From Chitinophagaceae bacterium (GTDB lineage: Bacteria > Bacteroidota > Bacteroidia > Chitinophagales > Chitinophagaceae), in assembly GCA_019638615.1 (NCBI GenBank), contig JAHBTL010000029.1, positions 29,286-93,285 on the forward strand: 64,000 bases of DNA. The letters are read 5' to 3'. Below the pieces are notes generated by a model. The model ran no database searches and had not been told where the DNA came from. It saw only the letters and a program-made list of their open reading frames with translations. The first letter of the stretch is position 1, and each line of letters begins with the position of its first letter. Positions 13,533-36,300 of this stretch are shown here, one piece after another. Both the position numbers and the translations under genes were made by a program.

Positions 13533-13582
13533 AAAAGATATTTTTATTGTTCAAATTTAACAGGCTTAAATTACGCAAATTA

Positions 13583-14836
13583 ATGAAGCAAAAACATCTT
13601 GTAATAGTTGGCGGAGGTGCCGCCGGTTTTTTCACCGCTGTAAATGCGGCGGCAATGAGTCCCGGAATTAAAGTAACGCTCCTTGAAAAAACCGGCAAAC
13701 TGCTTTCTAAAGTGCGTGTAAGCGGTGGCGGAAGATGCAATGTAACCCACGCCTGCTTTGATATAGCGGAAATGAGCAAGCGGTATCCCCGTGGCGGTAA
13801 TTTTCTTAAAAAAGCATTTCATCATTTTTTTACACGTGATACGATTGACTGGTTTGAACAGAGAGGAGTTAAACTGAAAACAGAGCAGGATGGAAGGATG
13901 TTCCCTCAAAGCAACAGTTCCGAAACCATCGTGGAATGTCTTATCCGGGAAGCCAACCGCTTCGGTGTTGAGATAAAAATGAATACTGAGGTAAAAGACA
14001 TTCTGAAAAATAATGAAAACGGCAGGTTTAATATATCTTCTGCAGATGGCGCACAACTGATTGCCGATTGGGTTTGCATTGCCTGTGGCGGTTTTCCTAA
14101 ACTATCCCGGTTTTTATGGCTGCGGCAACTGGGGCATACCATAGTGGAGCCGGTACCGTCGCTTTTCACTTTCAATATGCCGGGTAATGCCATTACCCAT
14201 TTAATGGGCATTAGTGTGGAGGAAGCGCAGGTGAAGGTGGCCGGCACCCGGCTGGAGGAAAAAGGCCCCCTGCTGATCACTCACTGGGGGTTAAGCGGGC
14301 CTGTCATCCTTCGGTTAAGCGCCTGGGGTGCAAGGATTTTAGCAGAAAAAAATTATGCATTTGATATACATGTTAACTGGTTGCCAGCTTATACAGAACA
14401 CAGTCTCAGAGAAGCCTGGAATGCTATCAGATTGCGGCATGCGGGAGGCAGCCTGGGCGGGCGCAATACATTTGGTTTGCCGGCCCGCTTGTGGGAGTAT
14501 CTGTTACAGCAGAGCGGGATACCGGCATCTCAAAGATGGGATGAGCTGCAGGCGAAGCAACAAAACAGTTTGATACTGCATTTAACCGCTCAGAAATTTT
14601 CTGTAAAAGGCAAAACAACTTTTAAAGAGGAATTTGTAACTGCCGGGGGAATATATTTACCGGAAATAGACGTAAACACAATGCAGAGCAGGAAGCATAC
14701 GGGATTATTTTTTGCAGGTGAAATACTGGACGTAGACGGCATTACGGGAGGCTTTAATTTCCAGCATGCATGGACCAGCGGCTGGATAGCTGCTTCGGGC
14801 ATTGGTAAGCTCGCACAATCCGCCTGCGGATCATGA
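13583..14836 (+). CDS. HI0933/BaiN-type NAD(P)/FAD-dependent oxidoreductase
   Basis: 417 residues from ATG 13583 (the frame is open from 13547, but MKQKHLVIVGGGAAGFF is the natural start). The FAD-binding Rossmann motif VVGGGAAG-type GGGAAG is at residues 9-14. VRVSGGGRCNVTHA near 50 and the C-terminal AGEILDVDGITGGFNFQHAW are signatures of the HI0933-like flavoprotein family. The physiological substrate of this widespread family is mostly unknown; the name BaiN comes from bile-acid work and should not be transferred. No obvious partner nearby. Confidence 0.9.
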   Translation: MKQKHLVIVGGGAAGFFTAVNAAAMSPGIKVTLLEKTGKLLSKVRVSGGGRCNVTHACFDIAEMSKRYPRGGNFLKKAFHHFFTRDTIDWFEQRGVKLKTEQDGRMFPQSNSSETIVECLIREANRFGVEIKMNTEVKDILKNNENGRFNISSADGAQLIADWVCIACGGFPKLSRFLWLRQLGHTIVEPVPSLFTFNMPGNAITHLMGISVEEAQVKVAGTRLEEKGPLLITHWGLSGPVILRLSAWGARILAEKNYAFDIHVNWLPAYTEHSLREAWNAIRLRHAGGSLGGRNTFGLPARLWEYLLQQSGIPASQRWDELQAKQQNSLILHLTAQKFSVKGKTTFKEEFVTAGGIYLPEIDVNTMQSRKHTGLFFAGEILDVDGITGGFNFQHAWTSGWIAASGIGKLAQSACGS

Positions 14837-15062: not shown

Positions 15063-16307
15063 ATGAATCAAAGAAACTACGCAGCGGTTTTGTTGGTGCT
15101 CCTTACATTTTTTGTTATTTCCTTTATGAGCAATATTATCGGGCCGCTTACACCCGATATTATCAGGGGGTTTAACCTGAACCTGGTTTTGGTTGCTTTG
15201 CTGCCTTTCGCTTTTTTTATAGCATATGGACTGGTGTCGTTGCCAACCGGTATTCTTATTGAAAAGTACAGCACCAAGCTGATCATGACCCTTGCTTTCG
15301 TATTGGCATTGTGCGGATCCCTGCTGCTGGCGTTGTTTCCCAATTACCTGTCTGCCATTGTATCGTTGTTTATTATTGGGGCGGGCATGGCTATGCTCCA
15401 GGTAATCATCAACCCGCTGCTGCGTATAGCCGGTGGCGAGGAAAACTATGCTTTTACTTCTGTTCTTGGGCAGTTGGTATTCGGATTGGCTTCTTTTGTA
15501 AGCCCGTTGGTATATTCCTACCTGGTACTCAATGTTGGCAACAGCGATTCAATTGCTTCGAAAATATTTTCCATGACGCCCGAAGCATTCCCGTGGATAT
15601 CGATCTATTTTCTTTTTGCGATCATTTGTGTGCTGATGATCATTGTAACGCTTAGTTTCAGGTTCCCGAAAATGGAGCTGAAAAGCGATGAGAAAGCGGG
15701 CAACCTGAAAGCTTACCTGCAGCTCATAAAGCGCCCGATGGTGCTCGCCTTTTTCTTTGGTATATTTTGTTATGTGGGAACGGAACAGGTTATTGCCAAC
15801 TGGATGTCGCAATACCTCAGCGTGTATTTTGGGTACGATCCCCAAACCACAGGCGCGCGGGCTGTTGCATATTTCTGGGGATTGATGACGGCCGGGGGAG
15901 TATTAGGGTTGCTGATGGTAAAAATAATGGACAGCCGCAAAGTATTGATCCTGTTCACATTCCTGGCAATATTGTCGCTTACGGCAGCACTGTTGTTTTC
16001 CGGTGAAGTAGCCCTTATAGCGCTGCCTCTTACCGGTTTTTTTGCTTCTGTTATGTATCCTGTAATTTTTTCACTGGCTTTGAATTCCGTTACACAAAAT
16101 TATGGCGTATTTGCAGGGATACTGTTAACGGGCATTACCGGTGGAGCAGTAGTTCCGTTAATTACAGGGTGGATAGGCGATACATGGGGACTGAAAGCAG
16201 CATATTGTTTCCTTTATTTAACCATGGGTTATATACTCAGTGTGGGAGTATGGGCAAAACCTGTTATTACCAATAAAACTGTTCAGTTGTTTAAAAAGAA
16301 ATCCTAG
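15063..16307 (+). CDS. MFS sugar transporter, FucP/GluP-like (FHS family)
   Basis: 414 residues with about twelve transmembrane helices. The first helices (TFFVISFMSNIIGPLTPDI), the loop with GILIEKYSTK and the segment GAGMAMLQVIINPLLRIAGG resemble the fucose-galactose-glucose:H+ symporter group, in which a QVxxNP motif is conserved. Import of a monosaccharide with protons is therefore the likely role; the substrate cannot be fixed. ATG 15063 is chosen because the first helix follows directly. The gene stands alone, followed by a gene-free kilobase. Confidence 0.85.
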   Translation: MNQRNYAAVLLVLLTFFVISFMSNIIGPLTPDIIRGFNLNLVLVALLPFAFFIAYGLVSLPTGILIEKYSTKLIMTLAFVLALCGSLLLALFPNYLSAIVSLFIIGAGMAMLQVIINPLLRIAGGEENYAFTSVLGQLVFGLASFVSPLVYSYLVLNVGNSDSIASKIFSMTPEAFPWISIYFLFAIICVLMIIVTLSFRFPKMELKSDEKAGNLKAYLQLIKRPMVLAFFFGIFCYVGTEQVIANWMSQYLSVYFGYDPQTTGARAVAYFWGLMTAGGVLGLLMVKIMDSRKVLILFTFLAILSLTAALLFSGEVALIALPLTGFFASVMYPVIFSLALNSVTQNYGVFAGILLTGITGGAVVPLITGWIGDTWGLKAAYCFLYLTMGYILSVGVWAKPVITNKTVQLFKKKS

Positions 16308-16464
16308 CTGCGCTGTCTCTTATAATTGATCGTGTTCCGTGCGCATTTTATTTGCATCGGCATTGAAGATCTTCCATAAAAAATTTGTTCAACGATGCAG
16401 CACTTTCTCATCATTGAAGGTAATAGGGTAGGATATGTCTGGTACGGGCGTGTTACTAAGGTCT

Positions 16465-16511
16465 AATAAGGTGAAGACCATTAAAACTAAACCTTCTTGC
16501 CTTATACAAGC
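16465..16511 (+). repeat. AATAAGG..AAACCTTCTT hairpin repeat, copy 1
   Basis: AATAAGGTGAAGA followed by CCATTAAAACTAAACCTTCT and TGCCTTATACAAGC. The segment TAAGGTGAAGA can pair with TCTTGCCTTA at its far end. A second copy is at 17013-17055 and a third partial copy (CACCTTCTTACCTTATACAAG) at about 17078-17099. The copies differ by point changes, so they are old. Confidence 0.6.
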
Positions 16512-16765
16512 AAAACATGGGATATACTTTCGGAGATCGGTGAGGAAATAGGTTGTTTGTAAACCTGAATTATCGCGAAGGTTACAAAATCATCAACCAC
16601 TTGCGCAGTCATGGCGAGCCCGCTTAAACAAATCCTGGAATATCAGTTTGCTTTGCGGGAGAAGCCATCCTCGCAGAAAAAGAGGCAATTGTCTAACTGT
16701 GGACTGCCTCACCCAACCTTCGGTCGGGTTGCCAATGTTATGTTATTCTGTTCACTGTTTATCAA

Positions 16766-16961
16766 TGAAGTATGAACTGCGGGTTTGTTGTTTATAAAAC
16801 TCGCTTTCTTTTAAACCAGAATGCCTGGTGCTGGTTTCTTTGTTACTTTTTTGCGGAAAAAAGTAACCAAAAAGCCGCCGGAAACATATTACTCCCATGT
16901 TTCCGGGAGGAGCTTCGATTTAGCTTTAGTGCTGCTGTGAACTCAGCAACAGAACCCTGAT
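16766..16961 (+). repeat. 195-bp dispersed repeat, copy A
   Basis: Runs from TGAAGTATGAACT to CAGAACCCTGA. It holds two palindromes: GTTACTTTTTT-GCGG-AAAAAAGTAAC (16842-16867, 11-bp perfect arms) and CCGGAAACAT-ATTACTCCC-ATGTTTCCGG (16878-16906, 10-bp perfect arms). An inverted second copy is at 28859-29048. A 62-residue open frame inside it is considered spurious. Confidence 0.85.
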
Positions 16962-17012
16962 GTGTTTGTTGATAACTTAGCCGACTTACATTATTTGCAT
17001 CGGACACAGAGG

Positions 17013-17055
17013 CAATAAGGGGAAGATCATTAAAACTAAACCTTCTTACCTTAGT
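17013..17055 (+). repeat. AATAAGG..AAACCTTCTT hairpin repeat, copy 2
   Basis: GCAATAAGGGGAAGATCATT followed by AAAACTAAACCTTCTTACC and TTAGTAA. It matches copy 1 (16465-16511) with a few substitutions, and is preceded by TTATTTGCATCGG, which also occurs upstream of copy 1. This suggests a larger old duplication later split by other sequence. Confidence 0.6.
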
Positions 17056-17351
17056 AACCGGTAATCAATCATGATCACACCTTCTTACCTTATACAAGCT
17101 AACCATGAAAAACAGGACAAAGCAAGCAATATTTGTATTCCTGCTTTGAAGCGAAAATTTAAACTTTATTGCGGTATGTTTTTATTTCTGATTTTGCAAT
17201 GAAAACAGTTCTCACCGAAAGCAACTTTTTCTCACCTCAGGCAAATGCGCCATAGTGTTCCGCGCTTGCAATAATTACCAATAAAAAGGTTTAACTTACA
17301 AAAGCTACAGTTACCACAACGTGATTAAGTTATAAATCTATTTTAGTATTT

Positions 17352-18236
17352 ATGCCGGCAAAAAACACAAGGTTCCTGCTACCATCTACTGTTCAATTGC
17401 TTCGTTTTCATTTCTCATTTTTTTTAATGCCGGTATTTTGGTTTGCAGTAAGCCAACTGGTATACCTGAATGTGAGTGATGCCCTATGGGTGTTTTTTAT
17501 TTTGCACCTGCTGGTATATCCCGCAAGCAACGGCTATAACAGTTTCATGGACAGGGATACAGGTAGCATAGGCGGCGTTAAAAAACCGATGGAGCCTACC
17601 CGGCAATTGCTATATGTTACTGTGGCGCTGGATGTTGTTGCCGTAATAGCAGGATTGTGGATCAGCTATTATTTTGCTGCCGGCATCCTGGCGTATATTT
17701 TAGTATCTAAAGCCTATAGCTACCGGGGGATCCGGTTAAAGAAATACCCTGTTTGGGGATATCTTTCCGTCATTATTTTCCAGGGAGCAGTAACTTTTTG
17801 GCTGGTATATCATGGCTGCAGCGCCAATAAAACACTGGATGTTCCATACATTCCCATGATTGTTGCCAGCCTGCTGATAGGAGGATTTTACCCGTTAACC
17901 CAAATATATCAATACGATGACGACAGGAAGGACGGGGTAACCACAATGAGTTACCTGTTAGGATATAAGGGCACTTTTTTATATTGTGGACTCGTATACG
18001 GTATTGCTTTTGTGTTGCTTTCGTACTACTTTTTTTATACGTTGCAACAAACGGCGTTTTATATTTTTTCTGCGGGCATGCTGCCTGTTTTAATATATTT
18101 CTTTGTGTGGGCAAAAAAAGTATGGCGTAATTCTTTGAATGCAGATTACACGCATACCATGCGCATGAATTCAATAGCTTCCATATGCATCAACACCACG
18201 TTTATTGTCATTTTTTTAATCAATCATTTTGAGTAA
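17352..18236 (+). CDS. UbiA-family prenyltransferase
   Basis: 294 residues with about eight to nine membrane helices. The first prenyl-diphosphate/Mg2+ motif is SNGYNSFMDRD (N60, N63, D67, D69) and the second is YQYDDDRKD (D190, D194), as in the UbiA superfamily, which transfers isoprenoid chains to aromatic acceptors in the membrane. The gene overlaps the start of the type III polyketide synthase by 8 bp, so the two are surely translated together. The likely acceptor is then the phenolic product of that synthase (inference). A quinone-pathway role such as MenA/UbiA is less likely because no quinone genes are nearby. Confidence 0.88.
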   Translation: MPAKNTRFLLPSTVQLLRFHFSFFLMPVFWFAVSQLVYLNVSDALWVFFILHLLVYPASNGYNSFMDRDTGSIGGVKKPMEPTRQLLYVTVALDVVAVIAGLWISYYFAAGILAYILVSKAYSYRGIRLKKYPVWGYLSVIIFQGAVTFWLVYHGCSANKTLDVPYIPMIVASLLIGGFYPLTQIYQYDDDRKDGVTTMSYLLGYKGTFLYCGLVYGIAFVLLSYYFFYTLQQTAFYIFSAGMLPVLIYFFVWAKKVWRNSLNADYTHTMRMNSIASICINTTFIVIFLINHFE

Positions 18237-19317
18237 AATTATTTCCATAGATACAGCAGTACCTGCTTATAAACACTGGCAGGACGACATACTTGGCTTT
18301 ATGCAGAAGGTATATGCTGCCGATACAACGGACATGCGCAAGATGAAATACCTGTATCATCAGAGCGGCATCAAAAGCCGTTATTCTGTTATACCCGACT
18401 ACAGTCGCCCGGTGCAGGAATGGAAATTTTATCCGAAGAGTGAAAACCTGGAGCCTTTTCCATCGCTTGAGCAACGCATGTATTTGTATCATAAATACGC
18501 AGCGCCCCTGTCTGTAGATGCTATCAGGAATTGCATAGACGGGATGATACCTGCTTCAGACATTACGCACCTGATAACAGTGAGTTGCACCGGGATGAGC
18601 GCGCCCGGGCTTGATCTGCAGATTGTAGACATGATGGATTTGCCCTCTACCCTTTACAGGACTTCCGTAAATTTTATGGGATGTTATGCAGCTATTCATG
18701 CTTTAAAAATGGCAGATGCCATTTGTAAAACAGATGAAAATGCGCGGGTGATGATTGTGTGTACGGAATTATGTACTCTGCATTTTCAGCGGGAAGCAAC
18801 AATGGACAATATAGCTTCCAGTATGTTATTTGCCGATGGTGCCGCTGCCGCATTGGTTACCCATAGCCATTTTGCGCGCCCGGGGCTGGAACTGAAAAAT
18901 TTTTACGCGGAAATCATACCCAAAGGCAGGAAGGATATGGCATGGGAATTATCTTCTTCCGGTTTTTTGATGACATTGAGCGGTTACATACCGGAGCTGA
19001 TAGAACAGGATTTTGATCAGTTGATTGCCCGGGCCATTGCCGCCGCGGGATTAAAAAAAGAAGATATGGATAGCTGGTGCATACATCCGGGGGGTAAACG
19101 CATACTGGAGGCGGTGCAAAGAAGTCTTCATCTCCATGATCATGCACTTGATCCTTCTTTTAATATATTGGAACGGTATGGAAATATGTCGTCGCCAACA
19201 GTATTATTTGTTTTAAAAGAAATTTTTCAAAAGGCTCAACGTTCGCAAAAAATAATGGGTGCCGCTTTTGGGCCGGGATTAACAATGGAAACTTTTATTG
19301 CGGAAATGAATGCCTGA
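18229..19317 (+). CDS. Type III polyketide synthase (chalcone/stilbene synthase superfamily)
   Basis: 362 residues, the usual length of bacterial type III PKS. The catalytic triad is visible: C152 in NFMGCYAA, H286 in SWCIHPGGK and N319 in RYGNMSSPT. The enzyme extends a CoA or ACP starter with malonyl-CoA and cyclises the chain to a resorcinol, pyrone or phloroglucinol ring. The start is TTG at 18229 inside the end of the UbiA gene (8-bp overlap). Starter length and ring type cannot be read from sequence; coupling to a prenyltransferase, a methyltransferase and a flavin oxidoreductase suggests a modified phenolic lipid or quinone. Confidence 0.93.
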   Translation: MSKIISIDTAVPAYKHWQDDILGFMQKVYAADTTDMRKMKYLYHQSGIKSRYSVIPDYSRPVQEWKFYPKSENLEPFPSLEQRMYLYHKYAAPLSVDAIRNCIDGMIPASDITHLITVSCTGMSAPGLDLQIVDMMDLPSTLYRTSVNFMGCYAAIHALKMADAICKTDENARVMIVCTELCTLHFQREATMDNIASSMLFADGAAAALVTHSHFARPGLELKNFYAEIIPKGRKDMAWELSSSGFLMTLSGYIPELIEQDFDQLIARAIAAAGLKKEDMDSWCIHPGGKRILEAVQRSLHLHDHALDPSFNILERYGNMSSPTVLFVLKEIFQKAQRSQKIMGAAFGPGLTMETFIAEMNA

Positions 19318-19350
19318 CTGAACAAAATAAAGCAGGCCTGCAAAACACGG

Positions 19351-19436
19351 GATATACCCTCGCTTTTCAGCCACAGGGTTTCCAACTTTCTTCCGAACAT
19401 TCGGAAGATTGGAAACCCTTTTCCGATGGGGTATAT
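19351..19436. repeat. Long nested hairpin after the polyketide synthase gene
   Basis: AGGGTTTCCAA (19375-19385) pairs perfectly with TTGGAAACCCT (19409-19419); inside it TCTTCCGAA (19389-19397) pairs with TTCGGAAGA (19400-19408), with only a CTT bulge between the two stems. An outer ATATACCC (19352-19359) can pair with GGGTATAT (19429-19436). This gives about 28 bp of stem. It could terminate the synthase transcript, but there is no U-run right after the main stem. Confidence 0.75.
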
Positions 19437-19455
19437 ATAATTTTAGCAGGCGGGT

Positions 19456-19620
19456 GGTGTCTCTCCATAGCCGTCAAATTAAGAAACCTACTCCGAATGG
19501 GGTTCAACAAAAAATTCGGCATTTTTGTCCCCCAACTTTGTTGGGGGCTATTCAAATTCAAGTCCGCCCGTGCCGGTACGGACGGGCCCTCCGGGCTTAA
19601 GACGGCTATGGTGAGACACC
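19456..19620. ncRNA. Candidate structured element closed by a 20-bp stem
   Basis: GGTGTCTCTCCATAGCCGTC (19456-19475) and GACGGCTATGGTGAGACACC (19601-19620) are complementary at 19 of 20 positions. Inside lie further stems: CCCCCAAC-TTT-GTTGGGGG (19529-19547), CCGAAT..ATTCGG (about 19493-19519) and GC-rich short stems near 19563-19596. The whole resembles a multi-branched RNA or a cruciform-prone DNA repeat. It sits in the 376-bp gap between the synthase and the methyltransferase. Whether it is transcribed as an RNA with a function is unknown; a dispersed palindromic repeat is the simpler alternative. Confidence 0.4.
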
Positions 19621-19693
19621 GACCGGAAAATTTGCATAGCGCGAAAATTTAAAATGCGCCCCGAAGTTTTTAACAAGTTCCGTAAATTGTTGC

Positions 19694-20392
19694 ATGTTTC
19701 TTTCCAGCCGCTCATACCAGGAAGAGTTACTAGATAACGAGGATATTCCTTTTGAAGATATCAGGCAGAACATGAAGGAACTTAACTTTATCAATACCTG
19801 GTTGGGCGGACACCGCATCAGCATTGCAGGCTTGAAGAAAATATGGCTGAATGCCGGGCAGCCCCGGAGCCTGCACATTTGCGAAATCGGGTGTGGCGGC
19901 GGCGATAATTTACGGGCGATTGAAAAATGGTGCAGCCGCAACAAGCTGAAAGTAATATTAACGGGCATTGACAAAAAAAAAGAATGCATTGATTTTGCCG
20001 GGCGGCAGTTCCGGGATCCTTTATACCGGTGGGTGGTGGCGGATTATAAATCCGTTCATTTTGAACACCCTGTACCCGATGTGATATTTTCTTCCCTTTT
20101 CTGTCATCATTTTTCCGAAAAAGATCTTGAATATATGATGACATGGATGCAGAGGAACAGCCGTTTGGGGTTTTTTATCAATGATCTTCACCGGCATCCG
20201 CTGGCTTACTATTCCATTAAATGGTTAACTTTTTTGTTCTCAAAAAGCTATCTCGTTAAAAACGATGCGCCCCTTTCGGTTTCACGCGGATTTAAAAAAG
20301 AAGATTGGGAAATGATCATGCAACGTGCCGGCATACAACAATACTCAATCCGGTGGAAGTGGGCCTTCCGGTGGCTTATAACAGCAGCATGA
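19694..20392 (+). CDS. Class I SAM-dependent methyltransferase of the polyketide cluster
   Basis: 232 residues. The SAM-binding motif I is ICEIGCGGGDNLRAI near residues 63-77, followed by an acidic loop (LTGIDKKKE) and the motif IV region VIFSSLFCHHF. A C-terminal FINDLHRHPLAYYSIKW and a basic end complete the fold. It probably O- or C-methylates the polyketide product (inference from context). Its last bases overlap the start of the FAD oxidoreductase (ATGA), showing tight coupling. ATG 19694 is used; the ATG at 19654 is in another frame and closes quickly. Confidence 0.87.
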   Translation: MFLSSRSYQEELLDNEDIPFEDIRQNMKELNFINTWLGGHRISIAGLKKIWLNAGQPRSLHICEIGCGGGDNLRAIEKWCSRNKLKVILTGIDKKKECIDFAGRQFRDPLYRWVVADYKSVHFEHPVPDVIFSSLFCHHFSEKDLEYMMTWMQRNSRLGFFINDLHRHPLAYYSIKWLTFLFSKSYLVKNDAPLSVSRGFKKEDWEMIMQRAGIQQYSIRWKWAFRWLITAA

Positions 20393-21531
20393 CTACACTG
20401 GAACAAACATATGATGCAGCTATTATAGGTGGAGGACTGGCAGGCTTATGTCTTTCCGTTCAATTGTCGCGCGCCGGGTTTAACGTGATTTTGTTTGAAA
20501 AGGAAAAATATCCTTTTCATAAGGTATGCGGCGAATATATAAGTTTTGAGTGCTGGAATTTTTTGGAAGAGCTGGGTGTGCCGCTGAGCGATTGGGATCT
20601 TCCGCAAATCAGGCAATTGATTGTGTCGGCTCCGTCGGGGAAGACCATCCGGCATAAATTAGACCTGGGCGGTTTTGGCCTCAGCCGTTACAAGCTGGAT
20701 GCTTTCCTCGCCAGCCTTAGCCGCAGCGCAGGCGCAACCATACTGGAGGAAACACGTGTAGACCATGTTTGGTACAGCAACGGGCATTTTCATATACAGT
20801 ACGGAACAAAAATGTGTAAAGCGAAGCTGGCCGTCGGTACATATGGTAAACGCAGTAATCTTGATATTAAGCTGAAGAGAGGCTTTATCCGGAAAAAGCA
20901 AAACAAGCTGAACAATTATATCGGGGTAAAGTATCACATTCAAACAGATTTCCCGCCTGATCAAATAGCCCTGCATAATTTTGATAACGGTTATTGCGGT
21001 ATATCGCAGGTAGAAGAAGGAAAATATTGTCTCTGTTATCTTACCACTGCGTTTAACCTTCAGCGTTCGGGTAATTCCATCAGAGAGATGGAGGAAAAAA
21101 TATTAAGCAGGAACCCCCACTTAAATGCAATCTTTGATAAAGCTGAATTTATAAGCCGGGATCCTGTAACCATCGCCCAAATCAGCTTCGATAAAAAGAC
21201 ACAACTGGAACATCATTTGATGATGGTGGGTGATGCCGCCGGGATGATAGCTCCTTTGTGCGGGAATGGGATGAGCATGGCCATGCATGGCAGTAAGCTG
21301 GCTTTTGAACAAATCAACGCCTTTCTCCGGGACAGGATAAGCCGTTATGAAATGGAATACAATTACCAGCAGCAATGGGATGCCACTTTTAGCCGCCGCC
21401 TTAAAGCCGGGCGTTTTATCCAGGGACTGTTTGGTAAAGATTGGGTAACCAATTACTTTATTAGTGTTTTGTCGCCTTTTCCGTCTCTTATAGATAAATT
21501 AATACGTCAAACCCACGGAGAGCCGTTTTAA
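20389..21531 (+). CDS. FAD-dependent oxidoreductase/monooxygenase (geranylgeranyl-reductase-like)
   Basis: 380 residues from ATG 20389, which overlaps the methyltransferase stop; the frame is open upstream but those codons lie in the previous gene. FAD motifs: AAIIGGGLAGLCLSV near residues 9-23, FHKVCGEYIS near 45-54, and the second flavin motif GDAAGMIAPLCGNGMSMAM near 280. The family includes aromatic hydroxylases and polyprenyl reductases. In this cluster it may hydroxylate the ring to a hydroquinone or quinone, or reduce the prenyl chain; the sequence does not decide. Followed by an 82-bp gap before an unrelated-looking oxidoreductase. Confidence 0.88.
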   Translation: MTTLEQTYDAAIIGGGLAGLCLSVQLSRAGFNVILFEKEKYPFHKVCGEYISFECWNFLEELGVPLSDWDLPQIRQLIVSAPSGKTIRHKLDLGGFGLSRYKLDAFLASLSRSAGATILEETRVDHVWYSNGHFHIQYGTKMCKAKLAVGTYGKRSNLDIKLKRGFIRKKQNKLNNYIGVKYHIQTDFPPDQIALHNFDNGYCGISQVEEGKYCLCYLTTAFNLQRSGNSIREMEEKILSRNPHLNAIFDKAEFISRDPVTIAQISFDKKTQLEHHLMMVGDAAGMIAPLCGNGMSMAMHGSKLAFEQINAFLRDRISRYEMEYNYQQQWDATFSRRLKAGRFIQGLFGKDWVTNYFISVLSPFPSLIDKLIRQTHGEPF

Positions 21532-21613
21532 AAAAGCTTTTAAAAAACTCCAAAGTTCAATTGCCGATTTTGGCTTATCTTCCCCCAACTTCTCTTTTAA
21601 ACTGATGATTGCC

Positions 21614-22972
21614 ATGAATGAAAAAAGATCTATCTCCCGGAGGGAATTTGTATCGACAGCTGCCGCCCTGTCATTGCCACTGTTAATGAGCCATACTGCC
21701 GGTATTGATTTGTCCAACGCCCAGCTCAGGCATGCCTGCATTGGGGTAGGGGGCATGGGCGGGTACGACCTGCAAAACTTTAAGCAGCATCCTGATGTAA
21801 AAATTGTTGCATTGTGCGATACAGATGCCGGCGTACTGAAAAAAGCTGCGGAATTGTTTCCCGAAGCGCGTACGTACAGCGACTGGAGAGAACTGCTTGC
21901 AAAAGAAAAGAACAATATTGATTCGGTAAATGTAACCGTACCTGATCATAATCATTTTATCATCGCCGTCAATGCCATCAGGTTGGGCAAACATGTATAT
22001 TGCCAGAAGCCGATGTGCCATGATGTAGCTGAAGTACGCGCACTTACAAACGCCGCCATTACAAAAGGAGTAGTAACACAATTGGGTACGCAGCATGCTT
22101 CGGGCAAAGGCGACCGTACGGCTGTGCAATGGATCAGGGAAGGTGTGATTGGTAAGATAAAAAATGTTTATCTCTGTTCCAACAGGAGCGGCATAGCAGG
22201 TTACCGGTTAGAAGGGCCGAGACCTTCCGGAGCAATTCCTGTGCCTGACGGGCTTAACTGGGACGTTTGGATAGGAACTGCGCCTGTTCGTTCTTATGCT
22301 CCGGAAATATATCATCCTGCCAAATGGCGTACCTGGCAGGATTTTGGAACGGGCTGGTCAGGTGACATCGGCTGTCATATCTTCGATGCAGTGTGGAAAG
22401 GAATGAATTTAAAAGCTCCTTTATCAGTAACTGCTGAAGTACAATCTTCCTGGCAAAACAGCCCGGCCCGGCGGGCAGATACCTGGCCACAGGGAGATCA
22501 TATTACATGGATATTCCCTGGTAACGAGTTCACGGCAGGAAATACATTACAAATAGAATGGTTCGACGGGGAATATTATCCTCCTGCAGAAGTGCAGGCA
22601 TTGTATAAAGAAAAATACCCGGAGGAATGTGCGATGCTGGTGGGTACCGAAGGCGCATTGCTGATTCCTCATACCGTTATGCCGGTATTATTGCCGCAGG
22701 AAAAGTTTGCCAGTCACCCGCTTCCGCAACTGGAAGAGCGGAACCACTATCATCATTTTGTAGATGCCTGTTTAAAACGGGTACAGAATGAATCGCATTT
22801 TGCGCAAACGGGCCCTATGACGGAAGCGATCCTTTTGGGTACCGTAGCCATCAGGGAGCCGGGTATTGTGCTGGAATGGGATGCGAAAAATATGAAGTTT
22901 CCCAATCATCCTGCCGCTGACCGGTACATTAAAAGAAAATACCGGAAGGGTTGGGAGGTGAGGGGTTTTTAG
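21614..22972 (+). CDS. Gfo/Idh/MocA-family oxidoreductase with a Tat signal
   Basis: 452 residues from ATG 21614 (an ATG three codons earlier, at 21605, is also possible). The N-terminus MNEKRSISRREFVSTAAA has a twin-arginine motif (R9-R10) and a hydrophobic stretch, so it is exported folded with its cofactor. The NAD(P)-binding part has ACIGVGGMGGYDL and KIVALCDTD; the conserved EKP-type motif appears as VYCQKPMCHD with the catalytic-site Lys. Such exported members in Bacteroidota act on sugars or 3-keto-sugars. It follows the polyketide cluster by 82 bp but is probably functionally separate. Confidence 0.9.
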   Translation: MNEKRSISRREFVSTAAALSLPLLMSHTAGIDLSNAQLRHACIGVGGMGGYDLQNFKQHPDVKIVALCDTDAGVLKKAAELFPEARTYSDWRELLAKEKNNIDSVNVTVPDHNHFIIAVNAIRLGKHVYCQKPMCHDVAEVRALTNAAITKGVVTQLGTQHASGKGDRTAVQWIREGVIGKIKNVYLCSNRSGIAGYRLEGPRPSGAIPVPDGLNWDVWIGTAPVRSYAPEIYHPAKWRTWQDFGTGWSGDIGCHIFDAVWKGMNLKAPLSVTAEVQSSWQNSPARRADTWPQGDHITWIFPGNEFTAGNTLQIEWFDGEYYPPAEVQALYKEKYPEECAMLVGTEGALLIPHTVMPVLLPQEKFASHPLPQLEERNHYHHFVDACLKRVQNESHFAQTGPMTEAILLGTVAIREPGIVLEWDAKNMKFPNHPAADRYIKRKYRKGWEVRGF

Positions 22973-30365: not shown

Positions 30366-33300
30366 ATGAAGTTATATAATAAAAAAGCGCGTAAGGAAAG
30401 ATTATCAGAATCATTACCACAGGCCATATCTTCTTTTACAAGGAACCTGCTTACACCTTTGTTTTCTCATAATGTTTTCGACAGGTATTCGGATGAAAAG
30501 GCACCCCTGCGTTCGGAACTTTTTACCCAGCAGCAAATGGAACAGCTTGCCCGTTCCATGGCCAGGCAGCATATCCTTATAAAAGGACAACCTTCCGAAC
30601 GAATGCTGAAAAGATTAAATGAAAATGAGGCCGTGCTGGTAGAAGTGCACCAGTTACTTACAGAAACGGTAAAAATAAACAGACGAATTGTCCCTGCGGG
30701 TGAGTGGCTGCTCGATAATTTTTATCTTATAGAAGAGCAGATTTATACAGGAAAAAAACATCTCCCCAAAAAATACAGCAAAGGGTTGCCCCAGCTCGCA
30801 AATGGTTCATCAGCCGGACTGCCCCGCGTTTATGATATGATCGTTGAGCTCATATCGCACAGTGATGGGAGGGTGGATATGGAAAGCCTGAGTGAATTTA
30901 TTCGTGCATACCAGTCTGTAATATCGCTTCAACTGGGCGAGCTGTGGGCTATTCCCATTATGCTCAGGCTTGCATTGATTGAAAACCTTCGTCGCCTTTC
31001 TACACAAATAGCAATCGATATCCTGCATAAGAACCAGGCGGATTACTGGGCAGACCGGATGATAGAAACGGCTGAGAAAAAACCAAGAGACCTGGTAGTA
31101 ATCATTGCGGATATGGCAAAGTCGAATCCCCCTGTTGAGGGCTCGTTTGTAGCAGAGCTGATCCGAAGATTGCAGGGCAGGGGTGCATCGTTGGCATTGC
31201 CCCTGAGTTGGATTGAGCAGCAATTGCAGGACACGGGCATTACAAGCAATGAAATCGTAAACATAGAAAACCAAAAACAGGCAGTACAGCAGGTATCGGT
31301 AAGCAACAGCATTGGCAGCATGCGCTTCCTTAATAATACCGACTGGAGAGGATTTGTAGAACGGGAAAGCATCGTTGAAAAAATCCTTTCGGAAGATCCT
31401 TCCCATGTATATGCGGAAATGGATTTTTACACAAAGGATCGTTACCGTCATGTTGTTGAGCAGGTATCTAAATACAGCACATTAACGGAAGAACAGGTGG
31501 CGCGCCTGGCGATTGAATTTTCCCGGGGCGACGGCCGGCTTGGACATGTAGGGTATTATCTTATTGATAAAGGGATAGAAAAAGTGGAGACGGCTGCAGA
31601 TGTACGTTTACCTTTTACAAAGCGTTTGCGAAAAAAAGCTTCCGGTACCGCATTGCTGAATTACATCCTGGCAATTGCTGCGGGAACATCTTTGCTCGTA
31701 TGGCCTTTAATAAGCTTTGCAAATTACGCGTATACATGGCAGTTAGTGTTGTTTGTAATAGTGTGTATCCTGGCTGTAAGCCAGTCCGTAACCGTAATGG
31801 TAAACTGGGTATGTACTTTGTTCATACGCCCCAATCCTTTGCCAAGGATGAACTTTGCAGCAGGAATTCCTGAAAGCTGCAGGACGCTGGTAGTTGTACC
31901 GGCAATGCTTTCGGGCATTAAGGAGATTGACGAATTAACCGAAGCGCTGGAAGTTCGCTTCGTAGCCAACCGGGGTAAAAATATTCACTTTGCGTTATTG
32001 AGTGATTTTACTGATGCCGGTACGCAAAACACGCCGGCAGATGAGGTGTTGCTGGAACACGCCATAAAAAGGATAGAGGAGTTATGTAATAAATACGCTG
32101 AAGCGGCGCCTGGGGCTTTTATGTTTTTCCATCGCCCGCGTGTATGGAATGCCCGTGAAAAAAAATGGATGGGATATGAAAGAAAGCGTGGCAAGCTTGA
32201 ACAGTTAAATGCCTTGCTGAGAGGAGATGCTTCCCACTTTATGACAGTGATAGGCGATCAGGCAATCTTTTCCCTTATTAAATATATCATTACTCTAGAT
32301 TCGGATACCAGGCTTCCCAGGGAAGCTGCCTGGAAGATGGCTGCAACGCTTGCCCATCCGCTGAATAAAGCAGTATACAATGATAACAAGAAAAGAGTCA
32401 CGGAAGGTTATACGATCCTTCAGCCCCGGGTGTCAAACAGCCTGCCTGGCGCTACTGCATCTTTTTATGCGCGTATCCATGGCAATGAGCCCGGCATTGA
32501 TCCATATACCCGGATCACATCAGATGTATACCAGGATCTTTTTGCCGAAGGGTCATTTATTGGCAAAGGCATTTACGAGATAGACATGTTCAGTAAGGCG
32601 CTGGAAAAAAGATTTCCTGAGAACAGGATTTTAAGCCATGACCTTATTGAAGGGGCTTATGCGCGTGCCGGCTTTTTAAGCGATGTACAATTGTATGAAG
32701 AATACCCCGGGTCTTATTTTACTGATATGAAACGCCGCCACAGGTGGATAAGGGGTGATTGGCAGATTGCAGCATGGCTATTTCCCCAAGTGCCGGCGCC
32801 AGAAAAACAATTCAGGAAAAATCCATTGTCCGCCCTGTCAAAGTGGAAAATCTTCGATAATCTCAGGCGCAGCCTGGCACCCATAGCATTGTTGTTATTA
32901 TTGATCAATGGCTGGGTTACCGGTAGGGGTTTGTGGTGGACATGTATTACTGTATTCCTTTTGATGCTACCGGTTTTGGTAAGGCTGCTGTATGAATTAT
33001 GCAACAAGCCGGCTGATATCGATTTTTACCGGCATATCCTCTATACACTGCAAAATACACGCGATACCTTTTACCGGTCATTACTGGACTTTGTGTTTAT
33101 ACCTTATGAAGCATATCTGAACGCGCATGCTATCCTGCTTACTGTATGGCGTATGTTTATTTCGAAGAAAAGATTACTGGAATGGAATCCGTACCGGTCA
33201 TCCTCTTCCCGTTATAACACATCTTCTCTTGCTTCCTCGTACGCAACTATGTGGATAGCCCCTTTTTTTTCTATGGCATTGGGCGCATACCTGTGGTATA

Positions 33301-36300
33301 TTCCATCGTCCGAAAAGATAGCGGCGCTGCTGTTGGCGGTTACATGGTTAATGTCCCCTGCCATTGCCTGGATTGTTGGAAGACCCGGCAGGCGTATAAA
33401 AAAAATGCTGAGCAGCTCGCAACATGTTTTTTTGCAGAAACTGGCAAGAAGAACCTGGAGCTTTTTTGAAAAATTTGTGACTGCCGAAGACAACTGGCTT
33501 CCGCCGGATAATTACCAGGAGAAGCCGGGACCTAAAATCGCGCATCGTACATCTCCCACCAATATCGGCTTGTCATTGCTTGCCAACTTAACGGCCTTTG
33601 ATTTTGGTTATATTTCAGCCGGCAGGCTGCTTGACAGAACTTCAAGAACGCTGAATACAATACAGGCGCTTGAAAAATACAGGGGACACCTGTATAACTG
33701 GTATGATACAACCACGCTGGCCTGCCTGTACCCGAGATATATCTCAACCGTTGACAGCGGAAATTTTGTGGGGCATATCCTTACTTTCCGGCAGGGATTG
33801 CTTCATCTGAAGTCGGCAAAAATTATTAATACCAATGCTTTCCGCGGGCTGCTTGACACGATGGATATATTGCTTGAAAAAGAAAGTGATCATGCCGGGT
33901 TCATTGCGTTGCGGAAAGAAATTGATATCATACACCAGGATCCGCCTCAATTGTTGCAGGAAGCCATGGATGGGATGGAGCGGATAAAAGCAGCGATTGC
34001 ATCGCTTGCGGCAGGTCGCAGCAAAAACGAGCAGCGTGACCCTGGAAATACAAATGAATGGTTCAACCTGCTGGCCGTACAGGCAGAAGATATATATTCC
34101 GACCTGGCTACAATGGCGCCCTGGCTGCTGTTTCGTGCGCCTTCTGCCAGGTTGAAGCATGTATACGATGAAGTAGATAATATACCTGATTTGCACGGGT
34201 TAAGTGCTATACAGGGCGAAGCGATGCACAAAATAAGAGCCTATTACAGGCACGATAATACACCGGTTGAAAATGAATGGCTGGATGTGTTCGTATCATC
34301 TGTTATTAATGCTTCAGCAAGGGCAAAAGAAAGGGTGGTATTAATAGACGAACTGGCTGAGCTGTGTGCTGCGAACGCAATGGTTGAATACGATTTCCTG
34401 TATAGTAAAAGCCGTCACCTGCTTTCCATCGGGTACAATGCAGAGGAACATCGCCGGGATAACAGCTATTATGATTTGCTGGCTTCGGAAGCAAGGCTGG
34501 CCGATTTTGTGGCAATTGCCCAGGATAAGCTGCCCCAGGAAAGCTGGTTCGCTTTGGGCCGGCAGCTTACCAATGTGGGCGGTACGCCTGTGCTTTTATC
34601 GTGGAGCGGGTCGATGTTTGAATACCTGATGCCATTACTGGTGATGCCTTCGTATGAAAATACCTTGCTTGATCAAACACACAAGTCTGTTGTTCAGAAA
34701 CAAATAGAATATGGCAGGAAGAGAGGCATTCCATGGGGAATGTCGGAATCGGGCTATAACATGGTGGATGCCGCACTTAATTTTCAGTACCGGGCCTTTG
34801 GCGTTCCGGGTTTGGGTTTGAAAAGGGGTTTGGCAGAAGACCTGGTCATAGCGCCCTATTCAGCCGTTATGTCGCTAATGGTAATGCCCGCCGAAGCCTG
34901 TGCCAATTTGCAGGAAATGGAAAAGATGGGCTTTGCCGGCGAATATGGTTTTTACGAAGCCATCGATTACACTTCGTCGAGGTTGCCGCGCGGACAGGGA
35001 TACGCTATTCTCCGCTCTTTTATGGCGCATCACCAGGGAATGTCATTTTTGTCGCTGTCGCACCTGTTACTCAACCAGCCCCTTCAAAAAAGATTTGCAT
35101 CCGATGTCCGCTTCCAGGCAACCCTGTTGCTGTTGCAGGAACGGATACCGCGCGTTTCAGTGCTCGATTTGCATAGCAAGCATATTTCAGACACAGGACA
35201 AACCGGCCAGGAAACAGAAACGCCTATCAGGGTAATCAATACGCCGCATACGCCGGTTCCGGACGTTCAGCTATTGTCCAACGGACGTTATCATGTAATG
35301 ATCACCAATGCGGGCGGCGGCTATAGCCGGTGGAAGGATTTGTCGGTTACGCGTTGGCGGGAGGATGGCACGCGCGACAACTGGGGAAGCTTCTGTTATA
35401 TACGCGATATGGACTCCGGGGAATACTGGTCTTCAGCTTTTCAGCCTTCCCTTACAACAGGAGATCATTACGAAGCTGTTTTTTCACAGGGAAGAGCGGA
35501 GTTCAGGAGGCGGGATCATGGTTTGGAAACGCATACGGAAATAGTGGTATCGCCGGAAGATGACGTAGAATTGCGGAGGTTGCATATAGCCAACAGGTTG
35601 CGGAAAAAGCGTAGCATTGAAATAACCAGTTACGCCGAAGTTGTTTTAACCACGCAGGCTGCAGATATGGCGCATCCGGCATTCAGTAATTTGTTTGTGC
35701 AAACGGAATTATTGCAGGAAAAGAACACCATTGTTTGTACGCGGCGTCCCCGCTCCGAAAAGGAGCAGGCGCCTTCGATGTTTCATCTCATGAAAGTGCA
35801 CCAGGCAACGGTAAAGCAGGTATCGTATGAAACAGATCGCATGAAATTTACAGGAAGAGGTAATAACAGCCAGCATCCTGTTGCATTGCGCAGTCAGGAT
35901 GCATTGTCCTGTACACAAGGGTCTGTGCTCGATCCTGTTGTAGCCGTGAGGTATGTGATAGAAGTGGAGCCGCAAAGTACCGTAATCGTGGATATGGTAA
36001 CCGGTATTGCCGATACGCGGCAGGAATGTCTTGTGCTGGTAGATAAATACCAGGATAAATTTTTAGTGGACAGGGGCTTTGAATTATCATGGACGCACAG
36101 CCAGATAATTTTACAGCAAATCAACGCCTCCGAAAGTGATGCGCAGCTCTACAGCAAGCTGGCAGGTGCCGTTATATACCTCAACCAGTCGTTGCGGGCC
36201 TCGCCGGACATCATTGTACAAAATCATCGCGGGCAATCGGGATTGTGGGGACATTCTGTTTCCGGCGACCTGCCGGTGGTATTGGTGAAAATAGAAAACC

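What the first reader, a model, noticed from the sequence alone, without database searches (positions are those of the whole stretch)
17352..21531. Compact UbiA - type III PKS - methyltransferase - FAD oxidoreductase cluster
The UbiA and PKS genes overlap by 8 bp and the methyltransferase and oxidoreductase genes overlap at ATGA, so this is one tailoring unit. In Streptomyces the srs operon uses a type III PKS, a methyltransferase and a flavin hydroxylase to make methylated alkylresorcinols and quinones; here a membrane prenyltransferase is added, suggesting a prenylated phenolic or quinone lipid. All catalytic residues looked for are present. I do not know of a characterised Bacteroidota product for this gene set.
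Basis: partly seen in the sequence, partly recalled or inferred. Interest (0 to 1): 0.7.

Follow-up and report, generated by a model that had tools for sequence, protein, structure and literature searches.

The report
Prenylated resorcinol lipid gene cluster
A four-gene bacterial pathway, common in one branch of Bacteroidota, probably makes a methylated, oxidised and isoprenoid-decorated phenolic lipid; the kind is known from other phyla, but the product and its use here are not.

Summary
The four genes are real: UbiA 17352-18236, type III PKS 18229-19317, methyltransferase 19694-20392, FAD enzyme 20389-21531, with exact 8-bp and ATGA overlaps. The cluster is less compact than claimed: 376 bp of dispersed repeat DNA separate PKS from methyltransferase, and a same-genus relative carries the two halves about 327 kb apart. 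All four lie together in 45 of 50 fetched same-family loci of this PKS clade. A distinct UbiA subfamily goes with one PKS clade: 21 of 21 genomes among 296 in the phylum, five with UbiA and PKS apart (cut-offs chosen afterwards). Trp239, at the ArsB Trp281 position, predicts resorcinol, not pyrone. Corrections: UbiA lacks the first Asp of its second motif (Gln187, 58 of 58); the FAD enzyme is geranylgeranyl-reductase/QhpG/halogenase-like. A UbiA-bearing precedent exists (agq, mostly recalled); PKS-methyltransferase-oxidoreductase triads are widespread. Best reading: a prenylated, methylated alkylresorcinol or alkylquinone lipid.

The parts
17352..18236 (+). UbiA-superfamily membrane prenyltransferase of a distinct, unnamed subfamily; N63-S-x-x-D67-x-D69 and Q187-x3-D191
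   Evidence: PF01040 6.1e-17; best NCBIfam hit only 28.9 bits; profile hit to 4od4 UbiA 2.6e-5; these residues invariant in 58 of 58
18229..19317 (+). type III polyketide synthase, TTG start, triad C152/H286/N319, Trp239 at the ArsB Trp281 / CHS Gly256 position
   Evidence: Pfam; residues; correspondence
19332..19662 (.). dispersed repeat DNA between PKS and methyltransferase; inverted arms 19375-19390/19404-19419 and 19451-19475/19601-19625
   Evidence: 61 matches in the own genome, its own place included, 40 of 128 candidates scored; inverted repeats
19694..20392 (+). class I SAM-dependent methyltransferase (PRK06202-like)
   Evidence: PF13649 1.6e-9; NF004851 6.1e-35, below its cut-off
20389..21531 (+). 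FAD-dependent oxidoreductase of the geranylgeranyl reductase / QhpG / halogenase-like group; GGGLAG, KVCGEY and GDAAG motifs
   Evidence: TIGR02032 2.6e-28, QhpG 3.3e-21, both below cut-off; profile against PDB; motif columns

Best explanation
The four genes form one pathway to a membrane-embedded meroterpenoid phenolic lipid. The PKS takes an acyl starter (length unknown, long-chain inferred), adds three malonyl units and closes the ring by C2-C7 aldol condensation with decarboxylation to a 5-alkylresorcinol (inferred from Trp239). The methyltransferase methylates the ring or an oxygen. The FAD enzyme hydroxylates the ring to a (hydro)quinone. The UbiA enzyme transfers an isoprenyl chain to the phenol in the membrane. 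Shown here: gene identity, gene overlap, co-occurrence, the resorcinol-type residue. Inferred: translational coupling, every chemical step and the order of tailoring.
For: Four ORFs with overlaps; UbiA/PKS overlap in 35 of 48 codirectional loci. All four genes within the fetched stretch in 52 of 103 sources of all PKS clades, and in 45 of 50 fetched same-family loci of this clade. UbiA subfamily at 288 bits or more in exactly the 21 of 296 phylum genomes with PKS at 343 bits or more, five of them unlinked: G333, G352, G262, G376, G344. In the family sample 80 genomes have both, 2 PKS only, 1 UbiA only (its hit starts 545 bases into a contig), of 194 (PKS at 300 bits or more, plus fragmented G032). 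Tree: the 61 labelled UbiA+ rows lie in one clade of 66 (SH-aLRT 99); the 42 rows outside are UbiA- at the strong cut-off. Trp239 in 98 of 103; ArsB W281G swaps resorcinol for pyrone (PMC6274091 passage). Two sister clusters carry a PHBH/UbiH-like FAD enzyme in the same place (L079, L117), which argues for ring hydroxylation.
Against: No metabolite data. UbiA lacks a canonical Asp (Gln187) and no model of it could be made. Starter length untested. The FAD enzyme is closer to GG reductases and halogenase-like proteins than to UbiH. G056 and G063 keep PKS, MT and FAD without this UbiA, and G376 has no methyltransferase hit at 1e-15, so not every part is indispensable. The 21/21 cut-offs were chosen after seeing the scores (next PKS 338.6 bits), related genomes are not independent events (4 label changes on the tree), and 26 further genomes, each with a PKS, hold a weaker, unlinked UbiA hit at 112-152 bits; 12 of the 42 outside rows come from such genomes.
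Confidence: 0.55

Rival explanations
1. The FAD enzyme is a prenyl reductase, not a ring hydroxylase: UbiA attaches geranyl or longer, and the GG-reductase-like enzyme saturates it, as the dihydrogeranyl group of the agq product would suggest.
For: TIGR02032, the GG-reductase superfamily, is its best NCBIfam hit; the agq product has a dihydrogeranyl group (title of Awakawa 2011 seen in a reference list).
Against: The same FAD type occurs with a type III PKS and no strong UbiA hit in L060, L063, L108, L109 and in the Sphingobium plasmid stretch L120 (its chromosome was not searched); two sister clusters hold a PHBH/UbiH-type enzyme at the same place. It is below the TIGR02032 cut-off.
Confidence: 0.17
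2. The PKS makes alkylpyrones or another non-resorcinol polyketide, and the later enzymes act on that.
For: The nearest PDB sequences include pks18, known to me as an alkylpyrone synthase (recall), and plant chalcone-synthase-like enzymes; one residue does not fix a product.
Against: Trp239 occupies the position that is Gly in the pyrone maker ArsC and Trp in ArsB, SrsA, FtpA, PKS10 and PKS11 (PMC5916927 and PMC6274091 passages); in the printed alignment pks18 has Leu there.
Confidence: 0.15
3. UbiA is a genomic companion that does not modify the PKS product: its Asp motif is altered and it may have another acceptor or no transferase activity.
For: First Asp of motif II is Gln in 58 of 58; a related UbiA branch with a like signature stands without PKS in six fetched loci.
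Against: Co-occurrence with one PKS clade, including unlinked cases, and overlap with the PKS gene.
Confidence: 0.13

Closest known systems
agqABCD of Actinoplanes missouriensis (alkyl-O-dihydrogeranyl-methoxyhydroquinones)
   Same: type III PKS whose alkylresorcinols are then prenylated and hydroxylated (PMC10896814 passage); gene content PKS, methyltransferase, hydroxylase and UbiA-type prenyltransferase is recalled
   Different: other phylum; no agq sequence was available to compare, so FAD type and UbiA subfamily may differ
pkqABC polyketide quinone operon (Mycobacterium smegmatis; homologous operon in Streptomyces sp. MNU77)
   Same: operon of PKS, methyltransferase and oxidoreductase with the Trp of ArsB 281 (PMC9927152 passages)
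   Different: three genes as described there; sequence homology of MT and FAD not tested here
hidABC (hierridins, cyanobacteria) and the planctomycetal triad
   Same: methyltransferase, oxidoreductase, type III PKS; planctomycetal PKS gives pentadecyl- and heptadecylresorcinols (PMC10896814 abstract and passages)
   Different: PKS last in the usual order; a prenyltransferase reported for one cyanobacterial cluster only (PMC8086630 passage)
srsABC of Streptomyces griseus
   Same: PKS, methyltransferase, hydroxylase by class
   Different: no prenyltransferase, and other enzyme families, both by recall; no sequence tested
PKS-MT-FAD triads on plasmids of Sphingobium, Roseomonas, Psychrobacter, Deinococcus
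   Same: PKS 36-40% and MT 24-30% identical; FAD 22-28% identical in three
   Different: no UbiA in the 13-kb stretches nor a UbiA match on any plasmid record; Deinococcus FAD is PHBH/UbiH-like and gave no blastp hit

Membership tests
type III polyketide synthase | chalcone synthase-like domains and Cys-His-Asn triad | tested here: met
   PF00195, PF02797 above cut-off; C152, H286, N319 invariant 103 of 103
resorcinol-forming (ArsB-like) type III PKS | Trp at the ArsB 281 position | tested here: met
   Trp239 aligns with CHS Gly256 through the Sphingobium homologue and keeps the ArsC 284/293 spacing as W239/M248; 98 of 103 loci. ArsB and ArsC sequences themselves were not aligned
resorcinol-forming (ArsB-like) type III PKS | 5-alkylresorcinol product from fatty acyl starter | not testable with these tools
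   needs enzyme assay
UbiA prenyltransferase superfamily | UbiA domain above curated cut-off | tested here: met
   62.2 bits against 34.2
UbiA prenyltransferase superfamily | two Asp-rich motifs, NDxxDxxxD and DxxxD (motifs recalled) | tested here: not met
   N63, D67 and D191 align; the further Asp of motif I is D69, two places early; first Asp of motif II is Q187. Read as a divergent member, not a canonical one
UbiA prenyltransferase superfamily | isoprenyl transfer to an aromatic acceptor | not testable with these tools
   needs assay
agq-type prenylated alkylresorcinol cluster | PKS, methyltransferase, FAD enzyme and UbiA in one cluster (agq gene content recalled) | tested here: met
   52 of 103 sources
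agq-type prenylated alkylresorcinol cluster | orthology of the parts to AgqA-D | not testable with these tools
   no agq sequence was at hand
pkq/hid-type PKS-MT-oxidoreductase triad | the three genes adjacent, with homologous PKS, MT and FAD enzymes | tested here: inconclusive
   adjacency met, homology to proteobacterial triads met; pkq and hid sequences not compared
geranylgeranyl reductase family | TIGR02032 score above cut-off | tested here: not met
   99.6 bits against 158.8
flavin-dependent halogenase | WxWxIP motif (recalled) | tested here: not met
   the stretch aligned with halogenases reads GYCGIS

The most novel reading that the evidence does not exclude
The four enzymes are a polyketide-headed counterpart of the ubiquinone pathway: the PKS supplies the aromatic head in place of UbiC, the divergent UbiA adds a long isoprenoid tail, and the methyltransferase and FAD enzyme finish the ring, giving a new isoprenoid (hydro)quinone that works beside menaquinone as a second membrane electron carrier in this branch of Bacteroidota.
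Probability: 0.12. Interest if true: 0.78.

Novelty: new variant of a known kind. Interest (0 to 1): 0.45.

Why it matters
Type III PKS clusters are common in Bacteroidota (10.74% of predicted clusters in one Flavobacteriaceae survey, PMC10734526 passage), and ten searches of the held library listed no paper that I could see to name a product for this gene set. Here the PKS clade, its UbiA partner and the predicted ring type are tied together, so the product class, the substrate of an unnamed UbiA subfamily and a possible role as an alternate electron carrier can be tested in one laboratory strain by deleting single genes.

Tried and rejected
srs as template: set aside as a class-level analogy; no sequences to test. 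Halogenase: considered because the FAD profile is closest in the PDB to flavin halogenases and hierridin C is chlorinated by an unknown mechanism (PMC8086630 passage); rejected on the missing WxWxIP motif. Extra conserved neighbours: the further neighbour groups reach 21 loci at most; those annotated near UbiA+ loci were a pyruvate dehydrogenase E2, a CoA-binding protein, a MarR-type regulator, an RNase H-like protein, an epimerase and an unnamed protein of about 490 aa; other groups were not annotated; none was taken as a part. Weaker UbiA hits (26 genomes of group f23, 112-152 bits) were left out of the 21/21 count; all 26 also have a PKS hit; six were fetched and show no PKS or MT, and only two weak FAD matches under 27 bits, within about 4 kb. 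Promoter scan uninformative: 8 found, 12.3 expected; terminator-like sites 14 against 5.4 expected, not followed. Rfam and tandem repeats on 16300-21700: none. PHROGs: one weak, irrelevant hit. UbiA on plasmids: no match at 1e-5.

Selection to keep in mind: 100 loci were fetched by coordinates picked by hand from the hits; the family and phylum samples overlap. The FAD profile covers both FAD types, so 'PKS-MT-FAD' counts mix them. The five plasmid rows (L117-L121) are UbiA- on their plasmid records alone. L001 and L004 were in no group in the tree test, though both have UbiA. UbiA matches with one stop codon inside the matched span: 3 of the 21 strong ones and 10 of 81, each with an open frame of 285 aa or more; not examined.
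Full report
What is there. The window holds four codirectional genes: UbiA 17352-18236, type III PKS 18229-19317 (TTG start), methyltransferase 19694-20392, FAD enzyme 20389-21531. The 8-bp UbiA/PKS overlap and the ATGA overlap are exact. Pfam supports the four assignments at family level; no NCBIfam model shown reaches its cut-off for any of the four (for the FAD enzyme the best 25 of 57 were shown). The flanking genes, a sugar-type MFS transporter and a GFO/IDH/MocA dehydrogenase, look unrelated.

The spacer. PKS and methyltransferase are 376 bp apart. The spacer holds dispersed repeats: 61 matches in the own genome, its own place included, with only 40 of 128 first-look candidates scored, and two inverted repeats. 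In the 83% identical relative L001 the genes are 45 bp apart, and in 75 of 87 loci measured the stop-to-stop frame of the methyltransferase already reaches the PKS end. In G027, same genus, UbiA-PKS lie at C43:367282-369217 and MT-FAD at C43:38853-40693, about 327 kb apart, so the operon there is split at this same junction. That repeats caused the split is inference; G027's junctions were not searched for repeats.

How general. PKS-profile matches occur in 114 of 194 family genomes and 171 of 296 phylum genomes at E 1e-3; many are weak and short and look like FabH-type enzymes, which was not tested. I fetched 100 loci. With window, L001 and L004 (103 sources), all four genes lie in the fetched stretch in 52, and PKS-MT-FAD without UbiA in 36, both FAD types counted. 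Of 50 fetched loci of the own family (f1, taken as Chitinophagaceae) that fall in the window's PKS clade, 45 have all four; exceptions are L010 (split), L036 (contig end), L051 and L058 (no UbiA) and L057 (FAD elsewhere). UbiA and PKS are codirectional in 50 loci and not in 8: seven outside the own order, and L059.

UbiA belongs to one PKS clade. With a UbiA profile (A2), 47 of 296 phylum genomes match at 1e-20: 21 at 288-475 bits and 26, all of group f23, at 112-152 bits. The 21 strong ones are exactly the 21 genomes whose PKS scores 343 bits or more. These cut-offs were set after seeing the scores, and the next PKS scores 338.6, so I built a tree: the 61 labelled UbiA+ rows fall in one clade of 66 (SH-aLRT 99), with three UbiA- rows (G056, G063, the Psychrobacter plasmid) and two unlabelled MAG loci that do have UbiA; the 42 rows outside are UbiA- at the strong cut-off (quick method, no bootstrap). 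Of those 42, 12 come from f23 genomes with the weaker UbiA elsewhere and four are plasmid records. Only 4 label changes are needed, so the Fisher values are not independent evidence. The stronger point is that UbiA is kept where it is not next to the PKS: G333, G352, G262, G376, G344. In 14 hand-picked genomes the FAD gene is present in 14 and the MT gene in 13, G376 lacking it.

PKS chemistry. C152, H286 and N319 are invariant in 103 of 103. Trp239 aligns with CHS Gly256 through the Sphingobium homologue, whose Trp it shares (that 1i8b carries G256F is recalled). The review PMC6274091 (passages) reports that ArsB W281G lost resorcinol and gained pyrone synthesis and that ArsC G284W did the reverse in part, with Met293 nearby; the window's W239 and M248 have the same spacing of nine. 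PMC5916927 (passages) lists Trp in FtpA, SrsA, PKS10 and PKS11. Trp is present in 98 of 103 loci; the five exceptions (Phe: L060, L061, L063, L108, L109) form a distant, UbiA-less clade. Prediction: 5-substituted resorcinol. Starter length is not known.

FAD enzyme and methyltransferase. The FAD enzyme's best models are TIGR02032 and QhpG; by sequence profile the nearest PDB chains are flavin halogenases, then digeranylgeranylglycerophospholipid reductase. The halogenase WxWxIP motif (recalled) is replaced by GYCGIS. The same FAD type stands in clusters without a strong UbiA (L060, L063, L108, L109) and in the Sphingobium stretch L120, and L079 and Deinococcus L117 have PHBH/UbiH-like enzymes in its place. 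I therefore favour ring hydroxylation over prenyl reduction. The methyltransferase is PRK06202-like and homologous to those of the Sphingobium, Roseomonas, Psychrobacter and Deinococcus triads.

UbiA. Against 4od4, N63 and D67 align with the first motif and D191 with the second, but the first Asp of motif II is Gln187, invariant in 58 of 58. The genome has six other UbiA matches; four of the six show the usual NxxxDxxxD string. Among the six, a heme O synthase, a TIGR01475 UbiA-like polyprenyltransferase (also hit by MqnP models below cut-off) and EboC pass their cut-offs, so respiratory quinone prenylation is likely served by another gene (inference). The cluster UbiA is a divergent member whose activity is inferred.

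Known relatives. PKS, methyltransferase and oxidoreductase triads are known as pkqABC (PMC9927152, passages), hidABC and planctomycetal operons (PMC10896814, abstract and passages; PMC8086630, passages). A UbiA-type gene near such a PKS is known in agq (one sentence in PMC10896814; title of Awakawa 2011 in a reference list; details recalled) and near losA (PMC7587189, table). The kind is therefore known. What seems new is its wide, coherent presence in Bacteroidota with a distinct UbiA subfamily and FAD type.

Verdict. A new variant of a known kind; product class plausible, product unknown. Ten searches of the held library (listings only, apart from passages of the papers named) showed no characterised product for this set in Bacteroidota; subscription journals are mostly not held.

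Noticed in passing
window 19318-19693: Spacer of dispersed repeats with inverted arms, 61 matches in the 7.18-Mb genome, its own place included; looks MITE-like, no transposase looked for.
   Followed up: partly
L134 (G027:C43:36000-43500) and L010: Same-genus relative with the operon split into UbiA-PKS and MT-FAD halves about 327 kb apart.
   Followed up: partly
L136-L141: A second UbiA branch with the NSxxDxD...IGG signature in f23 genomes, beside a thioredoxin-like protein and an unnamed protein of about 307 aa in 6 of 6 fetched loci, without PKS. All 26 genomes with this weaker hit also have a type III PKS elsewhere; whether the two work together is open.
   Followed up: partly
L060, L061, L063, L108, L109: UbiA-less clusters with Phe instead of Trp at PKS position 239 and a GG-reductase-like FAD enzyme: perhaps a different polyketide ring.
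   Followed up: partly
L076 8150-9532 and 14 like loci: A MATE-type transporter gene close to UbiA-less PKS clusters in 15 loci, median distance 65 bases.
   Followed up: partly
window 30366-39122: 2918-aa open frame with glycoamylase and GH94 domains, cyclic beta-glucan synthase-like.
   Followed up: no
window 13547-14836: HI0933-like / TIGR00275 flavoprotein upstream of the cluster, unrelated to it.
   Followed up: no
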